64,000 nucleotides of DNA, taken from positions 248,001 to 312,000 of the forward strand of contig JAUICH010000001.1 in assembly GCA_030427505.1 (NCBI GenBank). Reading direction: 5' to 3'. Shown in pieces: positions 45,793-64,000 of this stretch; the stretch's first letter is position 1; the number at the start of each line of letters is the position of its first letter. The stretch is from Verrucomicrobiia bacterium. GTDB taxonomy: Bacteria > Verrucomicrobiota > Verrucomicrobiia > Verrucomicrobiales > DEV007. The notes beneath the pieces are model-generated. The model was not told the DNA's origin, made no database searches, and was given only the letters and a program-made list of their open reading frames with translations. The translations under genes were made by a program, and so were the position numbers.

Positions 45793-46277
45793 GGCAAGTA
45801 CGTGTCCAGGATTGGAAGCGTGATTCTGCCATCCCTTCCCAAAGTCCCAGCGAATTTGGGTAATGAGCGATTCTAAGGTGGTGCGGGACGCCTAAACCCA
45901 CTTGGGCCAAAGGCCCAACGCATACCAGCCTAGGCCGCAAGGCCTAGGAATAGTATCGGTAAATTTAACGAGGGCTGAAAGCCCGGCGCATCCTCAGGGA
46001 TTGCGTAGTCGCAAAAGATGCGTCGGGCTTTCAGCCCTTGTTCTTTAATCGAATAAGGTTCCTGGGGCTCGCGCCCCAGGCTGGTATGCGGCGAGCCTTC
46101 GGCCCTCCTTGCGAGGAGTGAGTGCCTTTTGTGAGAAGTAAACACCCCTTTGAGTATTGGTATCTAGAGATCGGCTTAGAAAAGAAGTGTCGGGAAGAGC
46201 TGGCGTCATTGCGGCAATTTGCGGGTGGACGCTGGGGGAAAACCTTTCAGAATAGGGTTTCCCCCCCAGAATTGCCT
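45793..46277. other. intergenic region holding a palindromic repeat cluster
   Basis: Of the 485 bp between the oxidase and sulfatase genes, about 190 bp (45902-46090) are a nested set of palindromes described separately. The rest (46091-46277) should contain the sulfatase promoter and leader. No gene is seen. A longer in-frame extension of the sulfatase into this stretch lacks any family similarity and was not used. Confidence 0.6.
45902..46090. repeat. nested palindromic (REP/BIME-like) repeat cluster
   Basis: Several hairpins are arranged symmetrically: TTGGGCC-AAA-GGCCCAA (45902-45918), CCTAGGCC-GCAA-GGCCTAGG (45929-45948) and CTGGGGC-TCGC-GCCCCAG (46062-46079). They sit inside larger inverted repeats. 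CGCATACCAGCCT (45919-45931) matches AGGCTGGTATGCG (46078-46090) exactly. The 22-bp arms 45971-45992 and 46017-46038 (AGGGCTGAAAGCCC plus GGCGCATC) also match, with one mismatch. The whole block can fold into one long stem with side hairpins, as expected of REP doublets mobilised by a REP-type transposase. No transposase is in the window. Confidence 0.8.
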
Positions 46278-47861
46278 ATGAAACACCCGCTTCGTTTTTT
46301 GCTATTGCTGCCCCTGTGCGTCCTGGCTCTGGCCAACCTGCCTGCCCAGGCCGCTGAAACGCCAAACATCATCATCATCCTGGCGGACGACCAGGGCTTT
46401 GGCGATGTGAGCGCGCTGAATCCGGAATCGAAAATTCCCACGCCGCACGTCGACCGCCTGGCGAAGGAAGGGATGGCCTTTACCGATGGGCACACCTCTT
46501 CCTCCGTCTGCACGCCGACGCGTTACAGCCTGCTGACGGGCCGTTACCACTGGCGCAGCCGCCTGCAGAGAGGCGTGCTCGGTGGGTTTTCCCGGCCCCT
46601 CATCACGCCTGACACTTTGACTATTGCCGGGCTCTTGAAGCAGAAGGGCTATCACACTGCCTGCGTGGGCAAGTGGCACCTGGGGATGGACTGGCCGTTG
46701 AAGGGCGGCGGCTACGCGGACGACCAGGGGAACTTTGGTAAGATTGCTGATTTTCCGGACGCCTGGAATGTCGATTATGAAAAACCCATCGCCAATGGAC
46801 CGACCGCCCGGGGGTTCGACTACTACTTCGGCATCAGCGCCTCGCTGGACATGTTTCCTTATGTCTACATTGAGAACGATCACGCCACGCAACCCGCCAC
46901 GGTGGAGAAAGCCTTCCACAGGCCCGGCCCGGCGGCGGAAGACTTCGAAGCCGTGGACGTCCTGCCCCGCCTGACGGACGTGGTGTTGGACTACATTGGC
47001 GAGCGCGCGGCTGACGCGAAAGCTGGGAAGCCCTTCTTTCTCTATTTCCCGCTGAACGCACCCCATACCCCCATCGTGCCGACGGAGGAATGGGTGGGAA
47101 AAAGTGGGATCAACATCTATGCGGATTTCGTGCTGCAGGTGGACGAAACCGTGCGCCAGGTGCTGGAAGCACTGGACAAGAACGAGTTGACCAATGACAC
47201 GCTGATCGTCTTCACCACGGACAATGGCTGCTCCCCGGCGGCGAAAATAAACGAGCTTCAGGCCGCCGGTCACGAGCCTAGCTATATTTACCGCGGACAC
47301 AAGGCGGACATATTTGACGGCGGACACCGCGTGCCTTTCTTGGTGCGCTGGCCGGGTCACGTAGCACCGGGAACCCGCTCGGCACAGCTGGTCAGTCAGG
47401 TGGACCTGATGGCCACGGCGGCGGACATCGTGGGCGTGCCGCTTCCGGAGAACGCCGGGGTGGATAGCGTGTCCATCCTGTCCGCCATGTTGGGAACGGA
47501 TAAGGAACCGATCCGCGAAGCCCTGGTCCACCAATCCATCAATGGCGCCTTTGCCATTCGCCAAGGCGATTGGAAGCTGAACCTTTGCCCCGGCTCCGGC
47601 GGCTGGAGTTCCCCCCGGCCAGGTAGGGAAGATCTCTCCGGCTTGCCGAAGTATCAGCTCTACAATATGGCGGATGATCCGGGCGAGACGAACAATCTCC
47701 AGGCGGAGCATCCTGACATCGTCGCGAATCTGGAAGGCCTGCTGCGCACCTATATCGACCGGGGCCGTTCCACGCCGGGTCCCGATCAGGAAAACGAGGT
47801 GCCGGTCGAAATGGTGAAACCCATTGCCAAGGCACCGGCCAAGAAGCTGAAAGATCCTTGA
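46278..47861 (+). CDS. secreted S1-family sulfatase
   Basis: The start at 46278 (MKHPLRFLLLLPLCVLALA) yields 527 residues beginning with a signal peptide that ends near PAQAAET. The metal site is PNIIIILADDQGFGD. The formylglycine site is C78 in C-T-P-T-R followed by YSLLTGRY. GKWHLG and VFTTDNGCS are the other active-site stretches. The length and motif order match arylsulfatase-A/GalNAc-sulfatase-like enzymes. The tail is Lys/Pro-rich. It stands alone. Confidence 0.94.
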   Translation: MKHPLRFLLLLPLCVLALANLPAQAAETPNIIIILADDQGFGDVSALNPESKIPTPHVDRLAKEGMAFTDGHTSSSVCTPTRYSLLTGRYHWRSRLQRGVLGGFSRPLITPDTLTIAGLLKQKGYHTACVGKWHLGMDWPLKGGGYADDQGNFGKIADFPDAWNVDYEKPIANGPTARGFDYYFGISASLDMFPYVYIENDHATQPATVEKAFHRPGPAAEDFEAVDVLPRLTDVVLDYIGERAADAKAGKPFFLYFPLNAPHTPIVPTEEWVGKSGINIYADFVLQVDETVRQVLEALDKNELTNDTLIVFTTDNGCSPAAKINELQAAGHEPSYIYRGHKADIFDGGHRVPFLVRWPGHVAPGTRSAQLVSQVDLMATAADIVGVPLPENAGVDSVSILSAMLGTDKEPIREALVHQSINGAFAIRQGDWKLNLCPGSGGWSSPRPGREDLSGLPKYQLYNMADDPGETNNLQAEHPDIVANLEGLLRTYIDRGRSTPGPDQENEVPVEMVKPIAKAPAKKLKDP

Positions 47862-50306: not shown

Positions 50307-50553
50307 GCCAGGGACGCGAACGGGTTCCGTCTTTCATCTTCAATTCGTCACTTCAACGGGAGAAGACGCGCGGGTAAAAGGGATGGTTACAAAATGAAGC
50401 GACCCGTGACCCGGGGCGTGGCCGTTGTCTTCTTGGTTGCGGCGTCAGGGGCTTTCGCGGGCGCCCCAGGAAACGCTTCTCCTCAAAACGGCTACCGGGG
50501 ACCGCCAGAATTTCCAGCGGTCCCCGGCCATTTCCTCCGTGTTTGGGAAAATT

Positions 50554-50995
50554 GCGAAACGAATCTCGTAAGCCGAATTTTGTTCCACCGGCCCGGAGGC
50601 TAGCGGGACGATCATTTATCTAGCCCCCGCCGAAGCGGGAACTCCCCACCTAACGGCGGGGTGCGACTATTACCCGGGCTTATCCCGCCGGAGCGGGGCC
50701 GGGCAGGCGGCCCGTTTGCCCTGTTCTGTCTTGCACCGCACGGGGTTTTTCCTGCCTCCTTGGTTGCCCTTGGAGCGGTGAGCTCTTACCTCGCCATTTC
50801 ACCCTTACCGTTCCCCGGGCCGAAGCCTGGAGAGGGCGGTTTATTTTCTGCGACACTGTCCGTCCACGGGCGTTTTCACGGCCCGCGTCCCCCGTTTTCA
50901 CAGGGCATGCTGCCTTATGGTGTCCGGACTTTCCTCTAGCCCCGCTCCTCCCCGAAGGAAGGAGGCGACCAGCGATCGTCTCCGACTCATTTCGC
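50554..50995 (-). ncRNA. rnpB: RNase P RNA (M1 RNA)
   Basis: On the reverse strand the 5' end GCGAAATGAGTC pairs over 12 bp with the 3' end to form P1. The universally conserved blocks appear in order: GAGGAAAGTCCGGACACC (CR-I), GGCAGCATGCC, GCAGAAAATAAACCGCC, AGGTAAGAGCTCACCG (CR-II/III area), GTGCAAGACAGAACAG, TAGATAAATGATCGTCC (CR-V) and ACAAAATTCGGCTTACGAG. The length of about 442 nt fits a type A RNA. It processes tRNA 5' ends with RnpA. Confidence 0.96.
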
Positions 50996-51325: not shown

Positions 51326-54300
51326 CTACGTCGCCACAGGCGCTTCCGTCCCGTGCAATTCCGTCAGGCTTTGCCCGGCTTCCTCCAGCCAGTCGTGACC
51401 CGGCAGGGCATAGGGCCGGAAGGTTTCCAGGTAGCCTTCCTGCTCGTTGTAGAACAGGGCGCGGTTTAGGCCGAGGTCGCTGGCCTTGGGGCTGTCGATG
51501 AGGCTGGCGGAATCGTTGGCGCTCATCTGGAAAAGCACCCGCATTTCGAACTCGGACAGGGCTTTCCGGCTGAGGAAACGGTTCAGGTTGTTGTAGGTGT
51601 CCAGCGCCAGCACCAGGTGATAGCCGTGGGAGGGGCCCTCGGTGATCAAGTCGTTGAGCGCCGCGCCGGGGTCGGCGGAAGATTCGGTGTCGTCCATGGA
51701 AAAGCCGAAGTCTTCTTCGAACTTCAGTTTCTTGAAACGCTGTAGGCCAAAGACAAACAGGAACCGGGCAGGGACTTGGCTGGAAGCACCCGAGTCGTCG
51801 CCAGCGCGTTGCTTCATTTCAGCGGCGAGTTCCACGATGGCGTCCGCCGCATTGTTGCCCCGGTAGAGTTCGATGGTCTGGGGAACGGCCGCGATGGCGC
51901 GGTCCAGGAAATCGCGATAGGGAGAGTCCGGCGCGTTGCCGTCCAGGACCATGAACTTCACGCCGTCTCGCGGGTACTGCGCGGAGAGTCCCACCAGTCC
52001 GGCGGCGAAGATGGCCAGCGCGGCTTCCTCGCGCTGGCCCACGATGAGCAGGTTGTTCCCGCTCTGGCGGTGGAACACGGCTTCCGTCGGGCCCTTGATG
52101 GAGTTGGGCGCGCCCAGCCAGAGGTGCGCCGCGCCCGGCATTTCCGCGGGCCTGGCCGTCAGGGCCTGGCGCATGACGTGGTTTTCGCGGATCTCCGCCG
52201 GCGCATTGCCTTCGAAGACGATGGGGCCGGGATAGTTCCGGCCCGTGGCGTCCGCCAGGCTGCGAGCTTTGGTCAGGTATTCGTCGCGTTCGTCATCTCC
52301 CAGCCACACGACCTGGAAGGGACTGTTTCCTTCCAGCGCCCCGGCGGCATCGTTATAGATGCCCTCGCCCGGACGGGTCAGTAGGCGCGGGGCGGGGTTG
52401 TTGTCGTCCATGATGAGATAGGCGTCCGCTTCGTTGCATTGAAGGGCGATGCGGATGACCATCTGGCCGAAAGTGGTCCGGGCTAGCGTATAGGCTCCGC
52501 CTAAAGTCTGGGAACCCAGCAGGACGTGGATGCCAAAGGCGCGGCCCTGGCGCACGATGCGGTCCAGCAGCACGGCGGCGTTTTGGGAAATGCGGTCGTC
52601 TTCCACGAAGTATTCCTGGAACTCGTCAATCATTAGGAGCGAGCGGGGCATGGGCTCCGTGCCGCCGGCTTTCTTGTAGCCCGCGATGTCCTGAACCCCG
52701 AGTTTCCGGAAGATGTCTCCACGGCGTTTCAGTTCCTCATCCACGCGCTGGAGGACGGACAGGGCGAATTCGCGGTCCGACTCGATGGCCACCACCTTCG
52801 CGTGGGGTAGGTGGTGCGTGGCATAACACTTGAACTCGACCCCTTTCTTGAAGTCGATGAGGTAGAAATCCACCTGATCCGGGCTGCACCAGAGGGCCAG
52901 ATTCGTGATGATGACGTGAAAGAGCGTGGACTTACCGGAACCGGTTTTCCCCGCGATCAACGCGTGCTGGCAGGTGCCCTTGCCGATGGACAGGTACTGT
53001 AGCTTGGTGGCGCCGGTGCGGCCGATGGGAACGTTGAGTTCCTTCGTCGTGTCCTCGGTCCAGTAGGCTTCGTTTTGGGGGATGACGTGGGAGAAGGGCA
53101 CCTCCACCCGGCTGGAATCGATGCTGGCCTTGCCGATCTTCTGTATCAGCTCGGTGCTCAGGGCCGGGTCCGGCGGAGCGTCCAAGGTGATCTTGGCGCC
53201 TTGGCGTGGCTCGCCCGCGAGCAGGGCGCTTTCCTGCCCGGCTTTCATCCAGACGCTGTTGGCCTTCAGTTCGTTGCCAACATTGTCGTAGGGCGATTTC
53301 TGCCGCCGGTCCCAGTGCAGCAGGGTATAGACCCCGCAGCGGGCGCCGCTGGTGGCGATGCTGAGAAGGTGTTTCGCGGCGACTTCGCTGAAGCTGTTTG
53401 GAAAGTCCGCGACGACGAGGAACTGGTACTTCTCGGCGATAGTCCCAGCTTTCTCGTTGTACTCCGCGATGGTGGCGTACTCATTGCGGAGGTACATCTG
53501 GATGACCTTTTCCATGTGCTCGTTCAGCTCGCCCAGGCGCTGTTCCATTTGACCGGTCTGGGTCCAGATGCGGCTGTGGATCAGCGATTCCTCGAAGTCC
53601 GCCAGGTGCATGACCCCGGCGAAGTTCTCGCCCAGGCCCACGGGATCGAGAATGGTGAAGCTGACCCGTCCGGGAGGCGCCAGGCTCAGGATGCGGAGAA
53701 TGACGTTGTTCAGCGTGCTCACGGCATCCGCCCGGCCCTTTTCACCCGTCTCCAGCAGCAGCGAACCTTGTTTGGGCAGAGTGAGGGACAGGGGCAACTC
53801 TAGGTCCGCCGGTCCGGGCAAGGCCAGGCGCTCGTCTTTCGGACAACCGTTCGCCAGCTCCGGCACGCTGATGTGAAAGGTAGCAAACCGCGCCGCCGCG
53901 GCGAAGTCCCGGGGCGGACTCCAGTCTTTCCAGTTTTCCGGAATCCAGGCGGGGCAGCAGGCAGCGGCCTGTTCGTTGGCTTCGGCCACGGCTGTGTAGA
54001 GAGGAGTGATCTCCTGGCGCCAGTCCTCTTCCAGCTTAGCCCAGTTCGTTTCGTAGTCGGAAGTCAGCTGAGCCACCTTTTCGTCGCGCGCCGCTTGGGC
54101 CTGGTTCAGTTGGTCTTCTCCCTGGGCTTTCAATTCCGCCAGGCTGGAGGACTTCTCCGGATCGATTTTCGCGGCGGCTTCGTGGTGCTGCCGTTCGTTG
54201 GTGGCCAGGGCGCGTTGCAGGCGGCCGTCGATCTCCTTGGGGCTGGATTCCCGCAGCTTGGCGACTTCGCTGGCGGATTGTTTCCATTCTTTGTCCAGCT

Positions 54301-55267
54301 GGCTGACGTAGCTTTCGTGGCCGCTTACGAGGGCTTCGGAACGTTGCTGGTAGCGGGTTTCGAACTCCGTGGCGCAGGCATCGTGCAGGCGCCGGGCCGT
54401 GGCCACCAGCCGGGCCAGGGACGTGGCGGGTGCGTTGCTCCGGGCCCGGCCGGTCAGGTAGATCAGGAACAACGCCGCGACACTGGCGCCCAGCGAAATG
54501 CCGAGCGTGGTGTAGGAAGGCGCGGGAAAGTCAAAGTTCGCCGCCAGTGGAATCACCGCGCCGTGGCCCAACACCAGGAGGATGAACAGCAGAGAAAAGG
54601 GCAGGAACTTGAAGAAAGACGGAAGAAAGCGTTGCCGGAAAAAGGACAGCTCGTGCTGGGCCTGAGCGATCAGACTTTCCAGTTGCTTCACCAGTTCCGG
54701 TTCGCTGGCGGTAAGGTCAGGTTCCAGGGCGGGATCCTTCCGCGCCTGCGCCATTTTCCGGCGATAAACGGGGTAGCCGCCGAAGGCACGGCGCGTGTGG
54801 GTTTCCAGCGCGCGGAGGGTCTTCGCGTGACCGGCCAGGGCGGCCCGGTGAGTCTGGAGGGCCTCGGTCAAGGCCGCCAACTCCGCTTCCTGCTGACGGC
54901 TGGACGTGATGACTTCTTTTTGCAGGTGGTACTTCCGTCCTCCTTCCTGTTTCCGGATTTCGGTCAGGAGAAACTGCTTCGCGGCTTTGTGCGCCCGGTT
55001 GATCCGCCTGGCGCGGTTCTGGTATTTGGCTTCGGTCTGTTCCCGCCGGGATTCGTAGAGCGCTTCGGTCTCGGACAAGGTGGAAGCGCGTTGTTCTTCG
55101 AGTTCCCGCAGCGTCTCCTCGTGCTCTTCCTTGGTGGTGGAAAGGCTGAGCCGGTAGGCGCGGGTCAACTGCTCTTCGCGGGCGGAAAACTTCCGCACCG
55201 TCTCCCCGAGGCGGCCGATCAGGTCCAGCGTTTCGTCCACGGCGGGGGGGTTAGTGTTCTTCTTCAC
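51326..55267 (-). CDS. membrane-anchored FtsK/SpoIIIE-EssC-like ATPase of a type VII-like system
   Basis: The 1313-residue product has an N-terminal coiled coil (about residues 25-165), two membrane segments (about 221-241 and 253-272) and a second coiled coil (about 290-430). The FtsK/SpoIIIE ATPase follows. Walker A is G773-KTGSG-K779-S780, and Walker B is LLMIDEFQ near 874. GSQTLGGAYTLARTTFGQMV and a DDNNPAPRLLTRPGEG loop come next. A further P-loop-like domain near 1075 reads IVGQREEAAL and has lost GK(S/T), as in the degenerate terminal domains of EssC/EccC. There are no FHA domains. The gene overlaps the 73-residue WXG-like gene by 17 bp. Confidence 0.88.
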   Translation of the reverse strand: MKKNTNPPAVDETLDLIGRLGETVRKFSAREEQLTRAYRLSLSTTKEEHEETLRELEEQRASTLSETEALYESRREQTEAKYQNRARRINRAHKAAKQFLLTEIRKQEGGRKYHLQKEVITSSRQQEAELAALTEALQTHRAALAGHAKTLRALETHTRRAFGGYPVYRRKMAQARKDPALEPDLTASEPELVKQLESLIAQAQHELSFFRQRFLPSFFKFLPFSLLFILLVLGHGAVIPLAANFDFPAPSYTTLGISLGASVAALFLIYLTGRARSNAPATSLARLVATARRLHDACATEFETRYQQRSEALVSGHESYVSQLDKEWKQSASEVAKLRESSPKEIDGRLQRALATNERQHHEAAAKIDPEKSSSLAELKAQGEDQLNQAQAARDEKVAQLTSDYETNWAKLEEDWRQEITPLYTAVAEANEQAAACCPAWIPENWKDWSPPRDFAAAARFATFHISVPELANGCPKDERLALPGPADLELPLSLTLPKQGSLLLETGEKGRADAVSTLNNVILRILSLAPPGRVSFTILDPVGLGENFAGVMHLADFEESLIHSRIWTQTGQMEQRLGELNEHMEKVIQMYLRNEYATIAEYNEKAGTIAEKYQFLVVADFPNSFSEVAAKHLLSIATSGARCGVYTLLHWDRRQKSPYDNVGNELKANSVWMKAGQESALLAGEPRQGAKITLDAPPDPALSTELIQKIGKASIDSSRVEVPFSHVIPQNEAYWTEDTTKELNVPIGRTGATKLQYLSIGKGTCQHALIAGKTGSGKSTLFHVIITNLALWCSPDQVDFYLIDFKKGVEFKCYATHHLPHAKVVAIESDREFALSVLQRVDEELKRRGDIFRKLGVQDIAGYKKAGGTEPMPRSLLMIDEFQEYFVEDDRISQNAAVLLDRIVRQGRAFGIHVLLGSQTLGGAYTLARTTFGQMVIRIALQCNEADAYLIMDDNNPAPRLLTRPGEGIYNDAAGALEGNSPFQVVWLGDDERDEYLTKARSLADATGRNYPGPIVFEGNAPAEIRENHVMRQALTARPAEMPGAAHLWLGAPNSIKGPTEAVFHRQSGNNLLIVGQREEAALAIFAAGLVGLSAQYPRDGVKFMVLDGNAPDSPYRDFLDRAIAAVPQTIELYRGNNAADAIVELAAEMKQRAGDDSGASSQVPARFLFVFGLQRFKKLKFEEDFGFSMDDTESSADPGAALNDLITEGPSHGYHLVLALDTYNNLNRFLSRKALSEFEMRVLFQMSANDSASLIDSPKASDLGLNRALFYNEQEGYLETFRPYALPGHDWLEEAGQSLTELHGTEAPVAT

Positions 55268-55472
55268 AGTCTTTGATGATCTTTGTCAGCACGCGGTCGA
55301 GTTCCTCCATGACGGTCAGGGCCGATTCCACCCCACCCATCAAGGGCGTTATGTAATGGGCTTCGAACTCCCGGCGCTTGGCGTCGCGCCAGCCGCCGGC
55401 GGTCTCGTGCCACTGATTGTTCAGCTCTTTGGTGAGCGCCGCGAGCCGGGCTTTTTGTGTGTTCAGTCTCAT
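55251..55472 (-). CDS. small helical protein, probable second WXG100-like partner
   Basis: The 73-residue product is two helices around a turn, with W28-R29-D30 followed eight residues after the Trp by F36 (WRDAKRREF). The WXG100 protein at 56102 has the same spacing in WQDQEHDKF. The start overlaps the upstream stop as ATGA, and the 3' end overlaps the ATPase gene by 17 bp. It is therefore tightly embedded in the operon. At 73 residues it is shorter than typical WXG100 proteins, and the assignment is inference. Confidence 0.6.
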   Translation of the reverse strand: MRLNTQKARLAALTKELNNQWHETAGGWRDAKRREFEAHYITPLMGGVESALTVMEELDRVLTKIIKDCEEEH

Positions 55473-56050
55473 GGCGCGCCGCCGGTGTCTTCGTTAGGAT
55501 TGTTCTCGCCGGAAGCCTCTTCCGCCTCCCACGCGTCGCCATCCCGGGTCTGAGGCACGGACTCCTCAGAAACGGAAGCCTTCGACCCGGCGTAGGCGTG
55601 CAGGGCCTTCGCCGCCTGGGCCAGAAAGGCGATGCCTTTGGGTACGTCGGTGGCCAGCAGGTAGTTCACCCCCTCCAGTTTCTTGGCCAGGGGTTCCACC
55701 CGGCTGTCAAAGTTCCGGCTCCACTGTTTTACCACACGCAGTTTGTCTTCCGCTTCGCGGAGCTTTCGCCGCAGCTTCTGCACCTGCATTTGCTCGTGCG
55801 CGCTGGGTTCGCGAGAGGCGGACAGCCGGGAACTGAACAGCGCGGCCTCGGCCTCTTCGAGCTGCTTCTCGATCCGCCGGATCTGGCCTTTCCAGAAAGC
55901 CGGTTGATCGTGCTGAAGCCAGAGGCGAACCCGTTTGATGGTGTCCGACACCTCATCCATCGTGATCGTCGCCTTGTCCTGATAGACGATCATCCGGGAC
56001 CGGAACCTGTCCAGGACCTCCACGGAAGTGACATTGGCGCTTTCGGCCAT
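55469..56050 (-). CDS. coiled-coil protein of the type VII-like operon, unknown function
   Basis: The 193-residue, mostly helical protein begins VTSVEVLDRFRSRMIVYQDK, somewhat like the N-terminal helices of LXG/EsxA-related substrates. A long charged coiled coil follows (IRRIEKQLEEAEAALFSSR, LRRKLREAEDKLRVVKQW), then an acidic disordered C-terminus. It could be a substrate, chaperone or scaffold. It has no signal peptide. It lies between the WXG100 gene and the 73-residue gene. Confidence 0.65.
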   Translation of the reverse strand: MAESANVTSVEVLDRFRSRMIVYQDKATITMDEVSDTIKRVRLWLQHDQPAFWKGQIRRIEKQLEEAEAALFSSRLSASREPSAHEQMQVQKLRRKLREAEDKLRVVKQWSRNFDSRVEPLAKKLEGVNYLLATDVPKGIAFLAQAAKALHAYAGSKASVSEESVPQTRDGDAWEAEEASGENNPNEDTGGAP

Positions 56051-56101
56051 GGTGGGGGTATTGCGGGTTTGGGAAAGGTGGTTTTGTCAGGGGTGACCCA
56101 G

Positions 56102-56374
56102 TTAGCGTTGCTGGAGATACTCTTCGATCTTCTGCGCCTTGCGCATCAGGAATGGCGCGTAGCGGTTGGACGATTCCAGAAACTTGCTCAGGGCCTTTAC
56201 GGTCTGCTTGAACTCGTCCTCAAACTTGTCGTGTTCCTGGTCCTGCCAGGTGTCACCCAGCGCGCCGAAGCGTGCCTGGAGGGAAGTCATCCGGTTCTGG
56301 AGATCGCTGTTGAAACGCTTCAGTTCCTCGGCAAAACGCCGCAGTTCTTCGGGGTCGATGATTGCCTGTGCCAT
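56102..56374 (-). CDS. WXG100-family protein (EsxA-like)
   Basis: The 90-residue product is a helical hairpin typical of ESAT-6/EsxA proteins. Helix 1 spans residues ~7-40, the turn has W43-Q44-D45 (WxG variant WxD), and helix 2 carries FEDEFKQTVKALSKFLESS. The length is right for the family. Such proteins are secreted as dimers by EccC/EssC-type ATPases. It is the first gene of the operon that ends with the FtsK/EssC-like ATPase, which supports the assignment. Confidence 0.85.
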   Translation of the reverse strand: MAQAIIDPEELRRFAEELKRFNSDLQNRMTSLQARFGALGDTWQDQEHDKFEDEFKQTVKALSKFLESSNRYAPFLMRKAQKIEEYLQQR

Positions 56375-56568
56375 AGCGGGAAAGCGAGTCTTTGGGGTTC
56401 GGGGGAAAGCTCTTTCTTATCGATTCGGGGGAAAAGAGGCAATCATAGGATACCACAGGGCCGAGGTTTTCGTTACCCTTTGGCAGGGACCAAGGGAGTG
56501 ACAAGAGTCCCACGCCAGGGTGGTGTTCATCCTGGTTCGTCTCAGGTTTTGTGTTTTTCCTGAGAACT

Positions 56569-58609: not shown

Positions 58610-60535
58610 TCAAGGAACCTTGTTATCTGTTCCTTCCAGATCGTTCACCGCGCGGTTGGCGACCCGAATGATGTACTTGTTAGGCTGATCTTTCAGAGCG
58701 GCTTTCAGTTCCGGCAGAGCGGGGCGGGCGGTTTCGTCCAGATAATCCAAAGCGATGGCGGCCTGAAGGCGGGCCCACTGGTGCTCTCCGCTGAGTTCCT
58801 GCCGGAGGACCGGGAGACCTGCCGCGACTTCCGCTTCGGTACCCATGCGGCACAAAGCGCGGGCGGCGGCGATACGGACGGCGGGGGAGTCGTCTTGCAG
58901 GGCGGCTTTCAGCGCTCCGGTAGCCTCTTCGCCTGAGGCCGCTGAGGCTTCGGCAAAGTTCCCCAACCCGGTCGCTCCCCAGTAGCGGACCGCGGCGTCT
59001 GGATAGCTTTTCAGAGCCTCGGTGAGAGTGGGGATGGCCTCGGGCCCTTCAGAAGCTTTGCTGGAGACGTCGATCAGCTTGGCGATGAGGGCGGTGCTTT
59101 CTTCTCCTTTGCCGTGGAGGATTCCGTAGGTGGAACCAGCCTGGGGTTCGCGGACTTCGATCTCCGACTCCGGCAGAAGTCCCAGGTCGCGCACCTCGAA
59201 CTGCCAGTCGCGGCAGACCTGGCGCATGGCCTTGAGCCGCTCCTGGTGGGCGGGATCGGAGGCGAGGTTATGGATCTCGTGAGGGTCGTTTTCCAGATCG
59301 TAGAGTTCTTCCACCGGTTTGTGGTCCGCGGAAAAGAGGGCCATGGCTTCGCTCAAATTTCCGGCGGCTTCAGCCTTTCGGATTTCGCCCATGGTGGCGC
59401 CTTTTTCCGGGGTGTTCATGTACTGGTAGTAGGGCTTCAGCGGCTCGTAGTTGCGGATGTAGCGATAGCGGGGACCACGTACGGCGCGGATGATGTCGTA
59501 GCGTTCGTCCATGCGGTCGCGGGCGCCGAAGATGTAGTCGTGCGGCGGGGCGGCATTTTCACCCAGGAAAGGTTGGCCCTGCATGTAGCCCGGCACGGGC
59601 ACGCCGGCGAGATTCAGCACGGTGGGCCCGAAGTCCACGGAACAGATCAGGCGGTCTTCCACCGAATGGGGCGTCCCTTGGTCCGCGGCCCGGTAGGGTG
59701 CCGGAATGCGGACGATGAAGGGAATACGGGTGCCGGAATCGTAGAGCCAGCGTTTGGCGCGGGGCAGGCCCACGCCGTGGTCCGACCAGAAAAAGATAAT
59801 GGTGTTCTCATAGAGCCCCGCGTCCTTGATCTCCTGGATGAGATTCCCGGCCCAGGCATCCATGGCGGTAATGAGTTCGTAGTTCCGTTTCCAGTCTTCG
59901 CGGACCACGGGCGTGTCCGGATAATAGGGCGGCAGGGTGGTGAGTTTGTCAGGGTCCTGACGCTGTTCCGGGGTGAGATTCTTGGTTACCGATTCGTATT
60001 TGGATTCACTGGCGATGCCGCTCTCGTGACAGCCGGTGAAGTTGAACACGGCAAAGAAGGGTTTTCCCTCCGGCCGGTTTTTCCAGTGAGCGGAGCCGGA
60101 GCACTGGTCCCAGATTTCGTTCTTTCCGGGCTCGGAAAACTGGTAGTCGGTTTTGCTGGCGTTCGTGCAATAGTAGCCCGCGTCGCGGAGGAACTGGGGA
60201 AAGGGCCGGATGAAGTCCGGCAGTTTCGCGTTGCAGCGCATGTGATGGGTGCCGATGGAGTTTTGATACATCCCGGTAATGATGGTGGACCGGCAGGGGG
60301 CACAGACACCGGCGGCGGTGAAGGCGTGGCTATAGCGGACTCCCTCGACCGCCAACTGGTCCAGATTCGGCGTGATCGCATGAGGATCTCCGTAGCAGCC
60401 GAGGTGGGGGCTGATGTCTTCGCAGGAGATCCAGAGGATGTTGGGGCGGTCTTCGGCTGCCCGGGCAGACAAGCCGAACAACACCAAGACCGCGGCAAGA
60501 ACCGGAAACGTCAGGGGGTGGGTGAAACGAAACAT
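58610..60535 (-). CDS. secreted heparan-N-sulfatase-like sulfatase with C-terminal HEAT-like repeats
   Basis: The start at 60535 (MFRFTHPLTFPVLAAVLVL) gives 641 residues with a signal peptide ending near SARAAED. The metal site is PNILWISCEDISPH. The formylglycine site is C78 in C-A-P-C-R followed by STIITG, and the FFWSDHGVGLPR site follows. Motifs such as THHMRC resemble N-sulfoglucosamine sulfohydrolases. After the sulfatase domain (to about residue 490) comes a HEAT/PBS-like helical repeat tail (IPTLTEALKSYPDAAVRYWG, AAARALCRMG, AAIALDYLDE). The tail is unusual for the family and may bind partners. Confidence 0.92.
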   Translation of the reverse strand: MFRFTHPLTFPVLAAVLVLFGLSARAAEDRPNILWISCEDISPHLGCYGDPHAITPNLDQLAVEGVRYSHAFTAAGVCAPCRSTIITGMYQNSIGTHHMRCNAKLPDFIRPFPQFLRDAGYYCTNASKTDYQFSEPGKNEIWDQCSGSAHWKNRPEGKPFFAVFNFTGCHESGIASESKYESVTKNLTPEQRQDPDKLTTLPPYYPDTPVVREDWKRNYELITAMDAWAGNLIQEIKDAGLYENTIIFFWSDHGVGLPRAKRWLYDSGTRIPFIVRIPAPYRAADQGTPHSVEDRLICSVDFGPTVLNLAGVPVPGYMQGQPFLGENAAPPHDYIFGARDRMDERYDIIRAVRGPRYRYIRNYEPLKPYYQYMNTPEKGATMGEIRKAEAAGNLSEAMALFSADHKPVEELYDLENDPHEIHNLASDPAHQERLKAMRQVCRDWQFEVRDLGLLPESEIEVREPQAGSTYGILHGKGEESTALIAKLIDVSSKASEGPEAIPTLTEALKSYPDAAVRYWGATGLGNFAEASAASGEEATGALKAALQDDSPAVRIAAARALCRMGTEAEVAAGLPVLRQELSGEHQWARLQAAIALDYLDETARPALPELKAALKDQPNKYIIRVANRAVNDLEGTDNKVP

Positions 60536-60649
60536 GCCTTCTTTGTGACATGCCGGACGGGTTTCTGCAATCCCCGCTCCCTGGCGCAATTCGGCACCCG
60601 CGTGCAATTTTCGGCCACCTGAAGACCTGGCTGGTGCGTAACGGAGAGT

Positions 60650-62453: not shown

Positions 62454-64000
62454 TTACCGTCTGCGGTCTTCCGGTTTGGGGCGGGGTGGGCGCGGGCCTT
62501 CCACGGAGGTCAGCATGCGCGTCCGGCGTTCCACTTCCGGAGGCACGATGAAGACGTTCTGTTGCAGTTCTCCGCCGATGTCCGTGTTGCGCCGGATGAT
62601 GGTGGCCAGGGTCTGGCGCTCCAACAGATCCGCGAGTGACGGCGGGAGGTAGTTGCGGTAGAAAAAGCGGTCGCCGTCCCGCAGGCGGCGGAACTGATCG
62701 CTGAGGATGCGATGGAAGGTTTCTCCCACCTGAGCGCGGGGCAGGTGATCTTCCGCCAGGCCGCCGACCCAGAGATCTATCTGGTCGACCGATTCGTAAA
62801 CGGAGGCCAACGCTCCGGAAATGCTGGAGTCCGAGGAGATTTCGCTGAAGTCCGTGACGGGTTCCAAGCCCATCGCGACGCGCACCGTGTTGTAGTCCGG
62901 CAGGCCGTGGTCCCGGCCGCGCTGAATGTTCAGTGCCGCGAGGTCGAAGCCGCCGGCGCCGGGAGGGCCGAAGAGAAAGTTCCGCACGTCATCCACGAGA
63001 AAGGGATCGATTTCCTGGCAGACTTGAGCCGCGAGGCCGCGCAAGACCGGGGCGATGCCGTTGTCCTCGACTTCCGAAGGCTGGAAGAAAGCTTCGGCAA
63101 GCGACAGATTGCCGGCGGCAATCGTATTACCGGAAGCGTCCAGCCGTAGCAGTTCCGTGGAAAGCATGCTGTGCCCCAACCGGTAAGAGGCCGTGGCGAA
63201 TTCATTGGAAATGCCAGGGTTCACCCCTTTCCGGTAGCCTTCATAGGGAGGCAGGGATTTGGGACCCAGGAGCAGCGGCAGAAACTCGTGGTAGGTGACG
63301 ATCTGCAACTCCGCCGCCACGATGGCCCGCGCCATTTCGTAGATCTCGTCCCCGCTCAGGCCAGGATTGGCTTCGCCCAGAATGCGAGCCATGAAGTTGT
63401 GCTCCCGCACGAACAGGGTGTGCATGCAGGTGAGGCCGACCTGCTCGTTCGCCCGGACATCTCCAGCCAGGAACCAGGTGTCGCTGCTGTCCGGCACGTT
63501 ATCGACACCCTCTTCGTTGTAGGGAAGCAGGCCACCCTCGCTGGTCTTCAGGCGGCCCGTTCCGTCCAGGGTGCGGAGGGCGTCGGCGCGTTCTTCATCG
63601 GACCCATATACATTTGAAGCATCGATGAACGCGGTGATGAGATTGAGCTGTTCCCGGACGCCGGTCTCCAAGGAGTAGAGCGAGCGGTTGAGCGGGATGA
63701 CTTCCTCCCCCGTACCGGTGGGGTCGAAGTAGGGGTCGCCCGCCGGGACTTCGATGTCGAAAGGCTCTTCCGGGCTGGCGACGGGCGTTTCAGTCAGATC
63801 GTGATCCAGGAACTGGCCCCATTGCCAGAGATAGTCCGAGGCCTTGTGAGAATTCGGAATGGAACCTTCCTGCGCCATGACCGCGTTGCTGATCTCGCGG
63901 GCATTGGGCCGGTCCAGGCCGGAGGGGAGTTCCACTCCGTCCGCGTAGGCCGCTGGCAGCAGGCGGAGAAAGGCGGTTTCGGCCGCGCCCCATTCGATGT
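62454..64000 (-). CDS. animal-type haem peroxidase family protein, 5' truncated
   Basis: The frame is open past the right edge (reads IEWGAAETAFLRLLPAAYAD before the first listed GTG), so the N-terminus is missing. It has the peroxidase-cyclooxygenase superfamily motifs: RPNAREISNAV, the distal site WGQFLDHDLTETP, LTCMHTLFVREHNFMA, the proximal region ATASYRLGHSMLST and the late FDLAALNIQRGRDHGLPDYN. It probably uses H2O2 or organic peroxides and may be secreted. The C-terminal tail is Pro/Arg-rich. Confidence 0.93.
   Translation of the reverse strand, partial: IEWGAAETAFLRLLPAAYADGVELPSGLDRPNAREISNAVMAQEGSIPNSHKASDYLWQWGQFLDHDLTETPVASPEEPFDIEVPAGDPYFDPTGTGEEVIPLNRSLYSLETGVREQLNLITAFIDASNVYGSDEERADALRTLDGTGRLKTSEGGLLPYNEEGVDNVPDSSDTWFLAGDVRANEQVGLTCMHTLFVREHNFMARILGEANPGLSGDEIYEMARAIVAAELQIVTYHEFLPLLLGPKSLPPYEGYRKGVNPGISNEFATASYRLGHSMLSTELLRLDASGNTIAAGNLSLAEAFFQPSEVEDNGIAPVLRGLAAQVCQEIDPFLVDDVRNFLFGPPGAGGFDLAALNIQRGRDHGLPDYNTVRVAMGLEPVTDFSEISSDSSISGALASVYESVDQIDLWVGGLAEDHLPRAQVGETFHRILSDQFRRLRDGDRFFYRNYLPPSLADLLERQTLATIIRRNTDIGGELQQNVFIVPPEVERRTRMLTSVEGPRPPRPKPEDRRR

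What the first reader, a model, noticed from the sequence alone, without database searches (positions are those of the whole stretch)
51326..56374. Compact type VII-secretion-like operon in a Gram-negative genome
Four overlapping or tightly spaced reverse-strand genes encode a WXG100 protein, a coiled-coil protein, a 73-residue WXG-like protein and a 1313-residue FtsK/EssC-type ATPase with two membrane anchors. Known ESX and T7SSb systems are mainly actinobacterial or Firmicutes and need extra membrane parts (EccB/D/E, MycP, or EsaA/EssA/EssB). None of those is here, and there is no LXG or PE/PPE effector. The locus is either a minimal secretion device adapted to two membranes or a system with another purpose, such as envelope or DNA work.
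Basis: partly seen in the sequence, partly recalled or inferred. Interest (0 to 1): 0.75.

Follow-up and report, generated by a model that had tools for sequence, protein, structure and literature searches.

The report
Membrane-anchored WXG100–FtsK four-gene operon
A set of four neighbouring genes, kept in the same order in dozens of two-membraned Verrucomicrobia and Lentisphaerae, encodes a membrane motor resembling the engine of type VII secretion plus three small helical partners, but lacks the other known secretion parts and the export signal, so it is either a stripped-down secretion machine or a related machine with another job.

Summary
Four minus-strand genes encode a WXG100 protein, a coiled-coil protein (CC), a 73-residue WXG-like protein (S73) and a two-TM FtsK/EccC-like ATPase. 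Of 71 relative loci with room upstream, 68 carry all four in that order. In the sampled phylum the WXG and the full-length ATPase occur in the same 19 genomes. No fifth gene is conserved. The ATPase model resembles EccC more than FtsK but has three NTPase-like domains, not four. EssB, YukD and LXG are absent from 18 of 18 carrier genomes. No YxxxD/E export signal occurs in 72 WXG proteins, all of which have W-x-D instead of W-x-G. Every carrier has a separate canonical FtsK. The closest sampled relatives outside the phylum are not T7SS but WXG–coil–FtsK cassettes on Helicobacter, Caballeronia, Deinococcus and Rhodococcus plasmids. Their ATPases lack strong membrane segments and sit with toxin–immunity, VWA–CARF–PP2C–kinase or TerD genes. 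So this is the membrane-anchored branch of a WXG–FtsK family already noted in H. pylori. Translocation of its own helical partner complex is my leading guess (0.45); a non-secretory stress or defence complex is close behind.

The parts
56102..56374 (-). WXG100 protein (90 aa), W43-x-D45-x5-F51, no YxxxD/E, no tail; slowest-evolving member
   Evidence: PF06013 38.9 bits; alignment A7 of 72 sequences, 77% mean column identity; motif counts; mean p-distance 0.32 against 0.50 for the ATPase
55469..56050 (-). CC protein (193 aa), two-helix hairpin H6-76/H84-160 with a low-confidence tail
   Evidence: AlphaFold2 pLDDT 87.5 on 80 sequences; single copy in 18/18 genomes
55251..55472 (-). S73, short WXG-like protein (73 aa), W28-x-D30-x5-F36 invariant, C69 nearly invariant
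   Evidence: alignment A6 of 77 sequences; reciprocal WXG/S73 profile hits
51326..55267 (-). EccC-like FtsK/SpoIIIE ATPase (1313 aa): N-terminal coil 1-212, two TM about 217-240 and 252-274, coiled-coil stalk to about 440, D0 about 454-684, D1 about 744-1004 (Walker A 773-780, DE 881-882), D2 about 1044-1287 (degenerate)
   Evidence: PF01580 5e-34; A1/A8 conservation; model pLDDT 86.6; Foldseek 4nh0 EccC 1.2e-32
56375..56568 (-). intergenic stretch upstream of the operon, presumed promoter region (no sigma-70 consensus match)

Best explanation
The operon encodes an inner-membrane, probably hexameric, EccC-like ATPase and three helical-hairpin partners that act as one unit. The WXG100, S73 and CC proteins form a helical-bundle complex on the cytoplasmic side of the ATPase. 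Hydrolysis at the single intact motor domain (D1) drives movement of that complex, or of something it carries, at or through the inner membrane, as in type VII secretion. It is the membrane-anchored branch of a wider WXG-coil-FtsK family. In one relative (Helicobacter plasmid) the coil gene's slot holds a helical leader fused to a nuclease toxin with an immunity gene beside it; the verrucomicrobial CC protein would then be the toxin-less form of that leader. Shown: gene content, order, co-occurrence, membrane segments, fold, lack of several other T7SS parts. Inferred: hexamer, complex formation, translocation, cargo.
For: All four genes in the same order in 68 of 71 loci, with overlapping reading frames (CC-S73 in 50/72, S73-ATPase in 69/74). 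WXG and full-length ATPase in the same 19 genomes of 388. The three loci lacking WXG nearby have it elsewhere in the genome. Correlated divergence of all four proteins, Mantel r 0.65-0.82, 0 of 999 permutations (includes shared species history). The ATPase model's best match is T. curvata EccC 4nh0 (E 1.2e-32, 964 columns), above EssC and FtsK; its stalk end and first domain also match the ESX-5 pore EccC5 7b9f_C (Z 15.3, rmsd 5.6, 259 aligned). Two hydrophobic segments in 61 of 67 ATPases. WXG is nearest among solved structures to H. pylori HP0062 (3.8e-12), then to Gram-positive EsxB (8.7e-9). Helicobacter plasmid relative: WXG, helical leader with WHH nuclease, SUKH immunity, small protein, FtsK.
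Against: YxxxD/E in 0 of 72 WXG proteins. No EssB, YukD or LXG in 18/18 carriers with a working control. No orphan CC-like carriers, and no second WXG100 over cut-off in 17 of 18 carriers. No conserved neighbour that looks like cargo. Closest relatives outside the phylum, the toxin-bearing one included, have ATPases without comparable TM segments, so the family does not need a membrane. No secretion data.
Confidence: 0.45

Rival explanations
1. Non-secretory membrane-anchored stress or defence complex: WXG, S73 and CC are permanent cytoplasmic adaptors or regulators of the ATPase, which remodels or loads a cytosolic or membrane-associated partner; nothing is exported.
For: Nearest relatives outside the phylum are WXG cassettes with ATPases lacking strong TM segments, beside VWA-CARF-PP2C-kinase genes (L046, L181) or TerD genes (L183); another FtsK relative (L188, WXG not tested) sits with Hsp70 and GrpE. 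D1-profile scores: Rhodococcus 265, Caballeronia 243, Helicobacter 177 bits, against EccC 80 and FtsK 47. No export signal. WXG is the slowest-evolving member. PMC4978471 reports WxG/FtsK in an H. pylori TerY-P island; in G086 a Ser/Thr kinase with a C-terminal TM follows WXG-CC-S73 (by motif).
Against: The window clade has membrane anchors and an EccC-like stalk. No VWA, PP2C or kinase is conserved next to the operon.
Confidence: 0.35
2. Membrane-bound DNA translocase (FtsK-like) with WXG accessory proteins, for chromosome or foreign DNA handling.
For: The motor part superposes well on FtsK (6t8b Z 30.8, rmsd 2.5, 277 aligned); FtsK and conjugation coupling proteins share the fold.
Against: Tandem D0-D1-D2 layout matches EccC, not FtsK, over full length; no FtsK gamma domain among Pfam matches; canonical gamma-bearing FtsK present separately in 18/18 carriers; the WXG partner is constant.
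Confidence: 0.12
3. True T7SS subtype adapted to two membranes, whose outer-membrane and envelope parts are encoded elsewhere and unrecognised.
For: T7SSc to T7SSj show that partner parts differ widely between subtypes (PMC11217815).
Against: T7SSc-j ATPases have four predicted NTPase domains (PMC11217815), this one three; no conserved neighbour; D1 outside the T7SS group.
Confidence: 0.08

Closest known systems
H. pylori HP0062/HP0066 WXG-FtsK pair (HP0062 structures 3FX7, 2GTS)
   Same: WXG protein nearest of all solved structures (3.8e-12), same W-x-D variant (WRD); FtsK/SpoIIIE gene in the cluster (PMC3397514); WxG plus FtsK called a minimal T7SS set (PMC4978471)
   Different: HP0066 was not available here; the Helicobacter plasmid relative has an 823 aa ATPase with no strong TM segment, whereas the window's has 1313 aa with two TM, a long stalk, and CC and S73 genes
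T7SSa/T7SSb (EccC/EssC with Esx proteins) and T7SSc-j
   Same: WXG100 plus two-TM tandem FtsK-like ATPase with EccC-like fold
   Different: three NTPase-like domains instead of four, coiled-coil N-terminus, no EssB/YukD/LXG, no YxxxD/E; D1 falls outside the T7SS group
Caballeronia-type VWA-WXG-coil-FtsK-CARF-VWA-PP2C-kinase cassette (L181; L046)
   Same: WXG (1.3e-32) and ATPase (1.3e-128) profile hits, WXG-coil-small-ATPase order
   Different: ATPase without strong TM segments, extra signalling and CARF genes, an extra 113 aa gene, coil protein with an added C-terminal part of unknown type
Helicobacter sp. NHP19-012 plasmid WXG-WHH toxin-SUKH-FtsK cassette (L180)
   Same: WXG (7.9e-20) and ATPase (1.9e-72) hits; helical protein between WXG and a small protein
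   Different: helical protein carries a WHH nuclease domain with a SUKH immunity gene; no strong TM segment in the ATPase

Membership tests
Type VII secretion system (T7SSa-j) | WXG100-family protein encoded beside the ATPase | tested here: met
   PF06013 38.9 bits over cut-off 27.3; 18/18 carrier genomes
Type VII secretion system (T7SSa-j) | EccC/EssC-type membrane ATPase by fold, with two TM helices | tested here: met
   Foldseek top hits EccC and EssC; two hydrophobic segments in 61/67
Type VII secretion system (T7SSa-j) | four C-terminal NTPase domains (PMC11217815) | tested here: not met
   model and alignment show three, and the chain ends after the third
Type VII secretion system (T7SSa-j) | curated EccC/EssC equivalog score | tested here: not met
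   TIGR03924 117 of 509 bits; TIGR03928 111 of 778
Type VII secretion system (T7SSa-j) | C-terminal YxxxD/E export signal on the WXG protein | tested here: not met
   0 of 72; signal as described in PMC3935865
T7SSb | EssB/YukC and EsaB/YukD partners | tested here: not met
   0/18 genomes, control B. subtilis rings
T7SSa | EccB partner | tested here: inconclusive
   0/18, but no control genome rang; EccD, EccE and MycP not tested
T7SSb | LXG effectors | tested here: not met
   0/18, control rings
Type VII secretion system (T7SSa-j) | demonstrated secretion of the WXG protein | not testable with these tools
   needs cell fractionation
FtsK chromosome translocase | gamma domain (PF09397) on the ATPase | tested here: not met
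   not among Pfam matches of the protein; the genome's gamma domain lies on another contig, C4:83158
H. pylori-type WXG-FtsK module | W-x-D WXG protein clustered with an FtsK/SpoIIIE ATPase | tested here: met
   feature as described in PMC3397514 and PMC4978471
TerY-P / CARF-associated WXG-FtsK module | VWA, PP2C and Ser/Thr kinase genes in the cluster | tested here: not met
   tested neighbours in the window and clustering of 80 relatives show no conserved such genes; present in L046 and L181

The most novel reading that the evidence does not exclude
A self-contained, four-protein membrane machine of diderm bacteria, descended from the same stock as type VII secretion and as soluble WXG-FtsK toxin/defence cassettes, that moves its own helical complex at the inner membrane with no other dedicated part: a link between intracellular WXG-FtsK modules and true type VII secretion.
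Probability: 0.2. Interest if true: 0.85.

Novelty: new variant of a known kind. Interest (0 to 1): 0.6.

Why it matters
WXG100 plus FtsK genes in Gram-negative bacteria have been noted but not confirmed to secrete (PMC10765036). This operon is a conserved, single-copy, easily recognised form of them with a defined part list and named isolates, so the question whether WXG–FtsK pairs outside Gram-positives are secretion systems becomes directly testable. The contrast between a membrane-anchored branch and relatives without membrane anchors in toxin and defence contexts suggests that the WXG–motor pairing may be older or broader than secretion.

Tried and rejected
Pfam, NCBIfam and PADLOC gave no named family for CC or S73. 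Fold search with the CC model returned only unrelated long coiled coils, so nothing is claimed from it. Neighbour clustering of 80 loci gave only generic groups (PAS histidine kinases, PSCyt/PSD1 proteins) and no fifth component. The D1 tree does not place canonical FtsK reliably: long branch, midpoint root. A HigBA-like pair between CC and S73 in L065 was taken as a passing insertion, read from sequence only. A Pfam scan of the extra C-terminal parts in L181, L183 and L046 gave nothing usable. LXG-like homology of CC was considered, but no LXG match exists, so only the position in the operon is compared.

Full report
What is there. Four genes on the minus strand, in transcription order: WXG100 (90 aa, 56102-56374), a coiled-coil protein CC (193 aa, 55469-56050), a short WXG-like protein S73 (73 aa, 55251-55472) and a 1313 aa FtsK/SpoIIIE ATPase (51326-55267). 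WXG to CC is a 51 bp gap; the other two junctions overlap. Pfam confirms WXG100 (38.9 bits, cut-off 27.3) and FtsK_SpoIIIE (5e-34); CC and S73 match no family above cut-off. The window genome (6.4 Mb, 96.5% complete) has one WXG100 gene.

Conservation. A scan of 388 genomes of the phylum found the ATPase in 23 at E<=1e-20, 19 of them strong matches of the window's type. The WXG profile found a match in the same 19, plus one carrier of a distant ATPase (G196) and one weak hit. A scan of GTDB contigs found at least 458 relatives; the best 80 are nearly all Verrucomicrobia or Lentisphaerae records. Of 71 loci with more than 1.7 kb upstream of the ATPase, 68 have all four genes in the same order and strand. 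In the three others WXG lies elsewhere in the genome, with CC beside it in two of them; in G086 WXG–CC–S73 and the ATPase are also apart. No fifth gene recurs. The four proteins diverge in step, Mantel r 0.65-0.82, though shared species history contributes.

Which part is constrained. WXG is the slowest-evolving (mean p-distance 0.32), then the ATPase fragment (0.50), S73 (0.61) and CC (0.63). Within the ATPase D1 is most conserved (98 invariant positions), with intact Walker A and B; D0 and D2 are less conserved, and the N-terminal coil, TM region and stalk have no invariant position. S73 keeps W-x-D-x5-F with the spacing of WXG, and their profiles hit each other.

Structure. CC is a confident two-helix hairpin of 71 and 77 residues per helix. 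The ATPase model (residues 205-1313, pLDDT 86.6) shows two membrane segments, a long helical stalk with a weakly predicted tip and three tandem NTPase-like domains. Foldseek ranks T. curvata EccC first (1.2e-32 over 964 columns), then EccC and EssC fragments, then FtsK. The stalk end plus first domain also align with the ESX-5 pore EccC5 (Z 15.3, rmsd 5.6, 259 aligned). The motor part alone superposes as well on FtsK (Z 30.8), so the tandem layout, not D1, is the argument for EccC-likeness.

Is it type VII secretion? By fold and by WXG100 it resembles it. By membership it fails several tests: three NTPase-like domains where T7SS ATPases are described with four (PMC11217815), about a quarter or less of the curated EccC/EssC cut-offs, no EssB, YukD or LXG in 18 carriers with a working control, EccB inconclusive, and no YxxxD/E in any of 72 WXG proteins, all of which have W-x-D in place of W-x-G (signal from PMC3935865). 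In 17 of the 18 carriers there is only one WXG100 over cut-off, and CC is single-copy in all 18, so no satellite effectors were found.

Relatives change the picture. Searching plasmids with the ATPase and independently with WXG leads to the same records: Caballeronia, Helicobacter and Deinococcus; Rhodococcus was found with the ATPase, and its neighbour then matched the WXG profile. In Helicobacter sp. NHP19-012 the order is WXG, a 340 aa protein with a helical first part (read from sequence) and a C-terminal WHH nuclease (PF14414, 1.1e-11), a SUKH immunity protein, a 77 aa protein, FtsK. In Caballeronia it is VWA, WXG, 436 aa coil protein, 113 aa, 76 aa, FtsK, CARF, VWA, PP2C, kinase, and the same set recurs in L046 of this phylum, where the CARF protein matches a PADLOC CARF–PDDEXK model at 860 bits. 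The ATPases of these relatives have no strong hydrophobic segment, whereas 61 of 67 in the window's clade have two. Profile scores put the Rhodococcus, Caballeronia and Helicobacter cassettes (177-265 bits) closer than EccC (80) or canonical FtsK (47). In the D1 tree the T7SS first motor domains form a weakly supported group (93/66) apart from the WXG–FtsK family (96/93); FtsK sits inside the latter on a long branch and is not placed reliably.

Not the chromosomal FtsK. Every carrier tested has a separate gamma-domain FtsK (18/18), and the operon's ATPase has no gamma match.

Mechanism. Shown: membrane segments, EccC-like tandem motor with one intact site, constant helical partners. Inferred: hexamer, partner complex, direction of movement. 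The Helicobacter cassette, with a helical-leader toxin in the slot of CC, argues that the module handles helical-leader proteins; the absence of an export signal, of envelope parts and of cargo, and the apparently soluble state of the relatives, argue that export is not the family's general role. I put translocation of the module's own complex or its cargo at 0.45, a non-secretory membrane complex at 0.35, DNA translocation at 0.12 and an unrecognised full T7SS at 0.08.

Prior knowledge. HP0062 of H. pylori is an ESAT-6-like dimer with WRD, clustered with an FtsK/SpoIIIE gene (PMC3397514). WxG and FtsK are described as a minimal T7SS set in an H. pylori TerY-P island, with HP0062 and HP0066 as paralogues (PMC4978471). 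A 2023 review notes WXG100 with FtsK in certain Gram-negatives, unconfirmed as secretion (PMC10765036, citing Sutcliffe 2011 and Unnikrishnan 2017, not read here). What I did not find described in the papers searched is this four-gene, membrane-anchored branch and its link to the toxin and CARF cassettes; the search covered open-access papers only.

Noticed in passing
window 50553-50992 (-): Class A RNase P RNA gene just downstream of the ATPase gene (Rfam RF00010, 176.5 bits).
   Followed up: no
window 46061-46106 (+): Acido-Lenti-1 small RNA (RF01687, 40.6 bits) upstream of a sulfatase gene.
   Followed up: no
window 62454-63935 (-): Animal-type haem peroxidase (PF03098, 491 bits) in a bacterial genome.
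   Followed up: no
window 46122-47861 (+) and 58610-60607 (-): Two sulfatases, the second fused to HEAT repeats.
   Followed up: no
L180:6758-11160: Helicobacter plasmid cassette: WXG, helical leader with WHH nuclease, SUKH immunity, small protein, FtsK without strong TM segment; Hsp70-like gene upstream (read from sequence).
   Followed up: partly
L046:5666-16345 and L181:5555-15538: VWA-WXG-coil-small-FtsK-CARF(PDDEXK)-VWA-PP2C-kinase cassettes in a genome of the window's phylum and on a Caballeronia plasmid.
   Followed up: partly
L151:697-2798: In G086, WXG-CC-S73 is followed by a Ser/Thr kinase (by motif) with a C-terminal membrane helix, and the ATPase lies on another contig.
   Followed up: partly
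   Followed up: partly
L065:3063-3966: HigB/HigA-like toxin-antitoxin pair (by sequence) inserted between CC and S73.
   Followed up: no
window 55254-55472 (-), residue C69: Nearly invariant cysteine near the end of S73 across 77 sequences; no role known.
   Followed up: no
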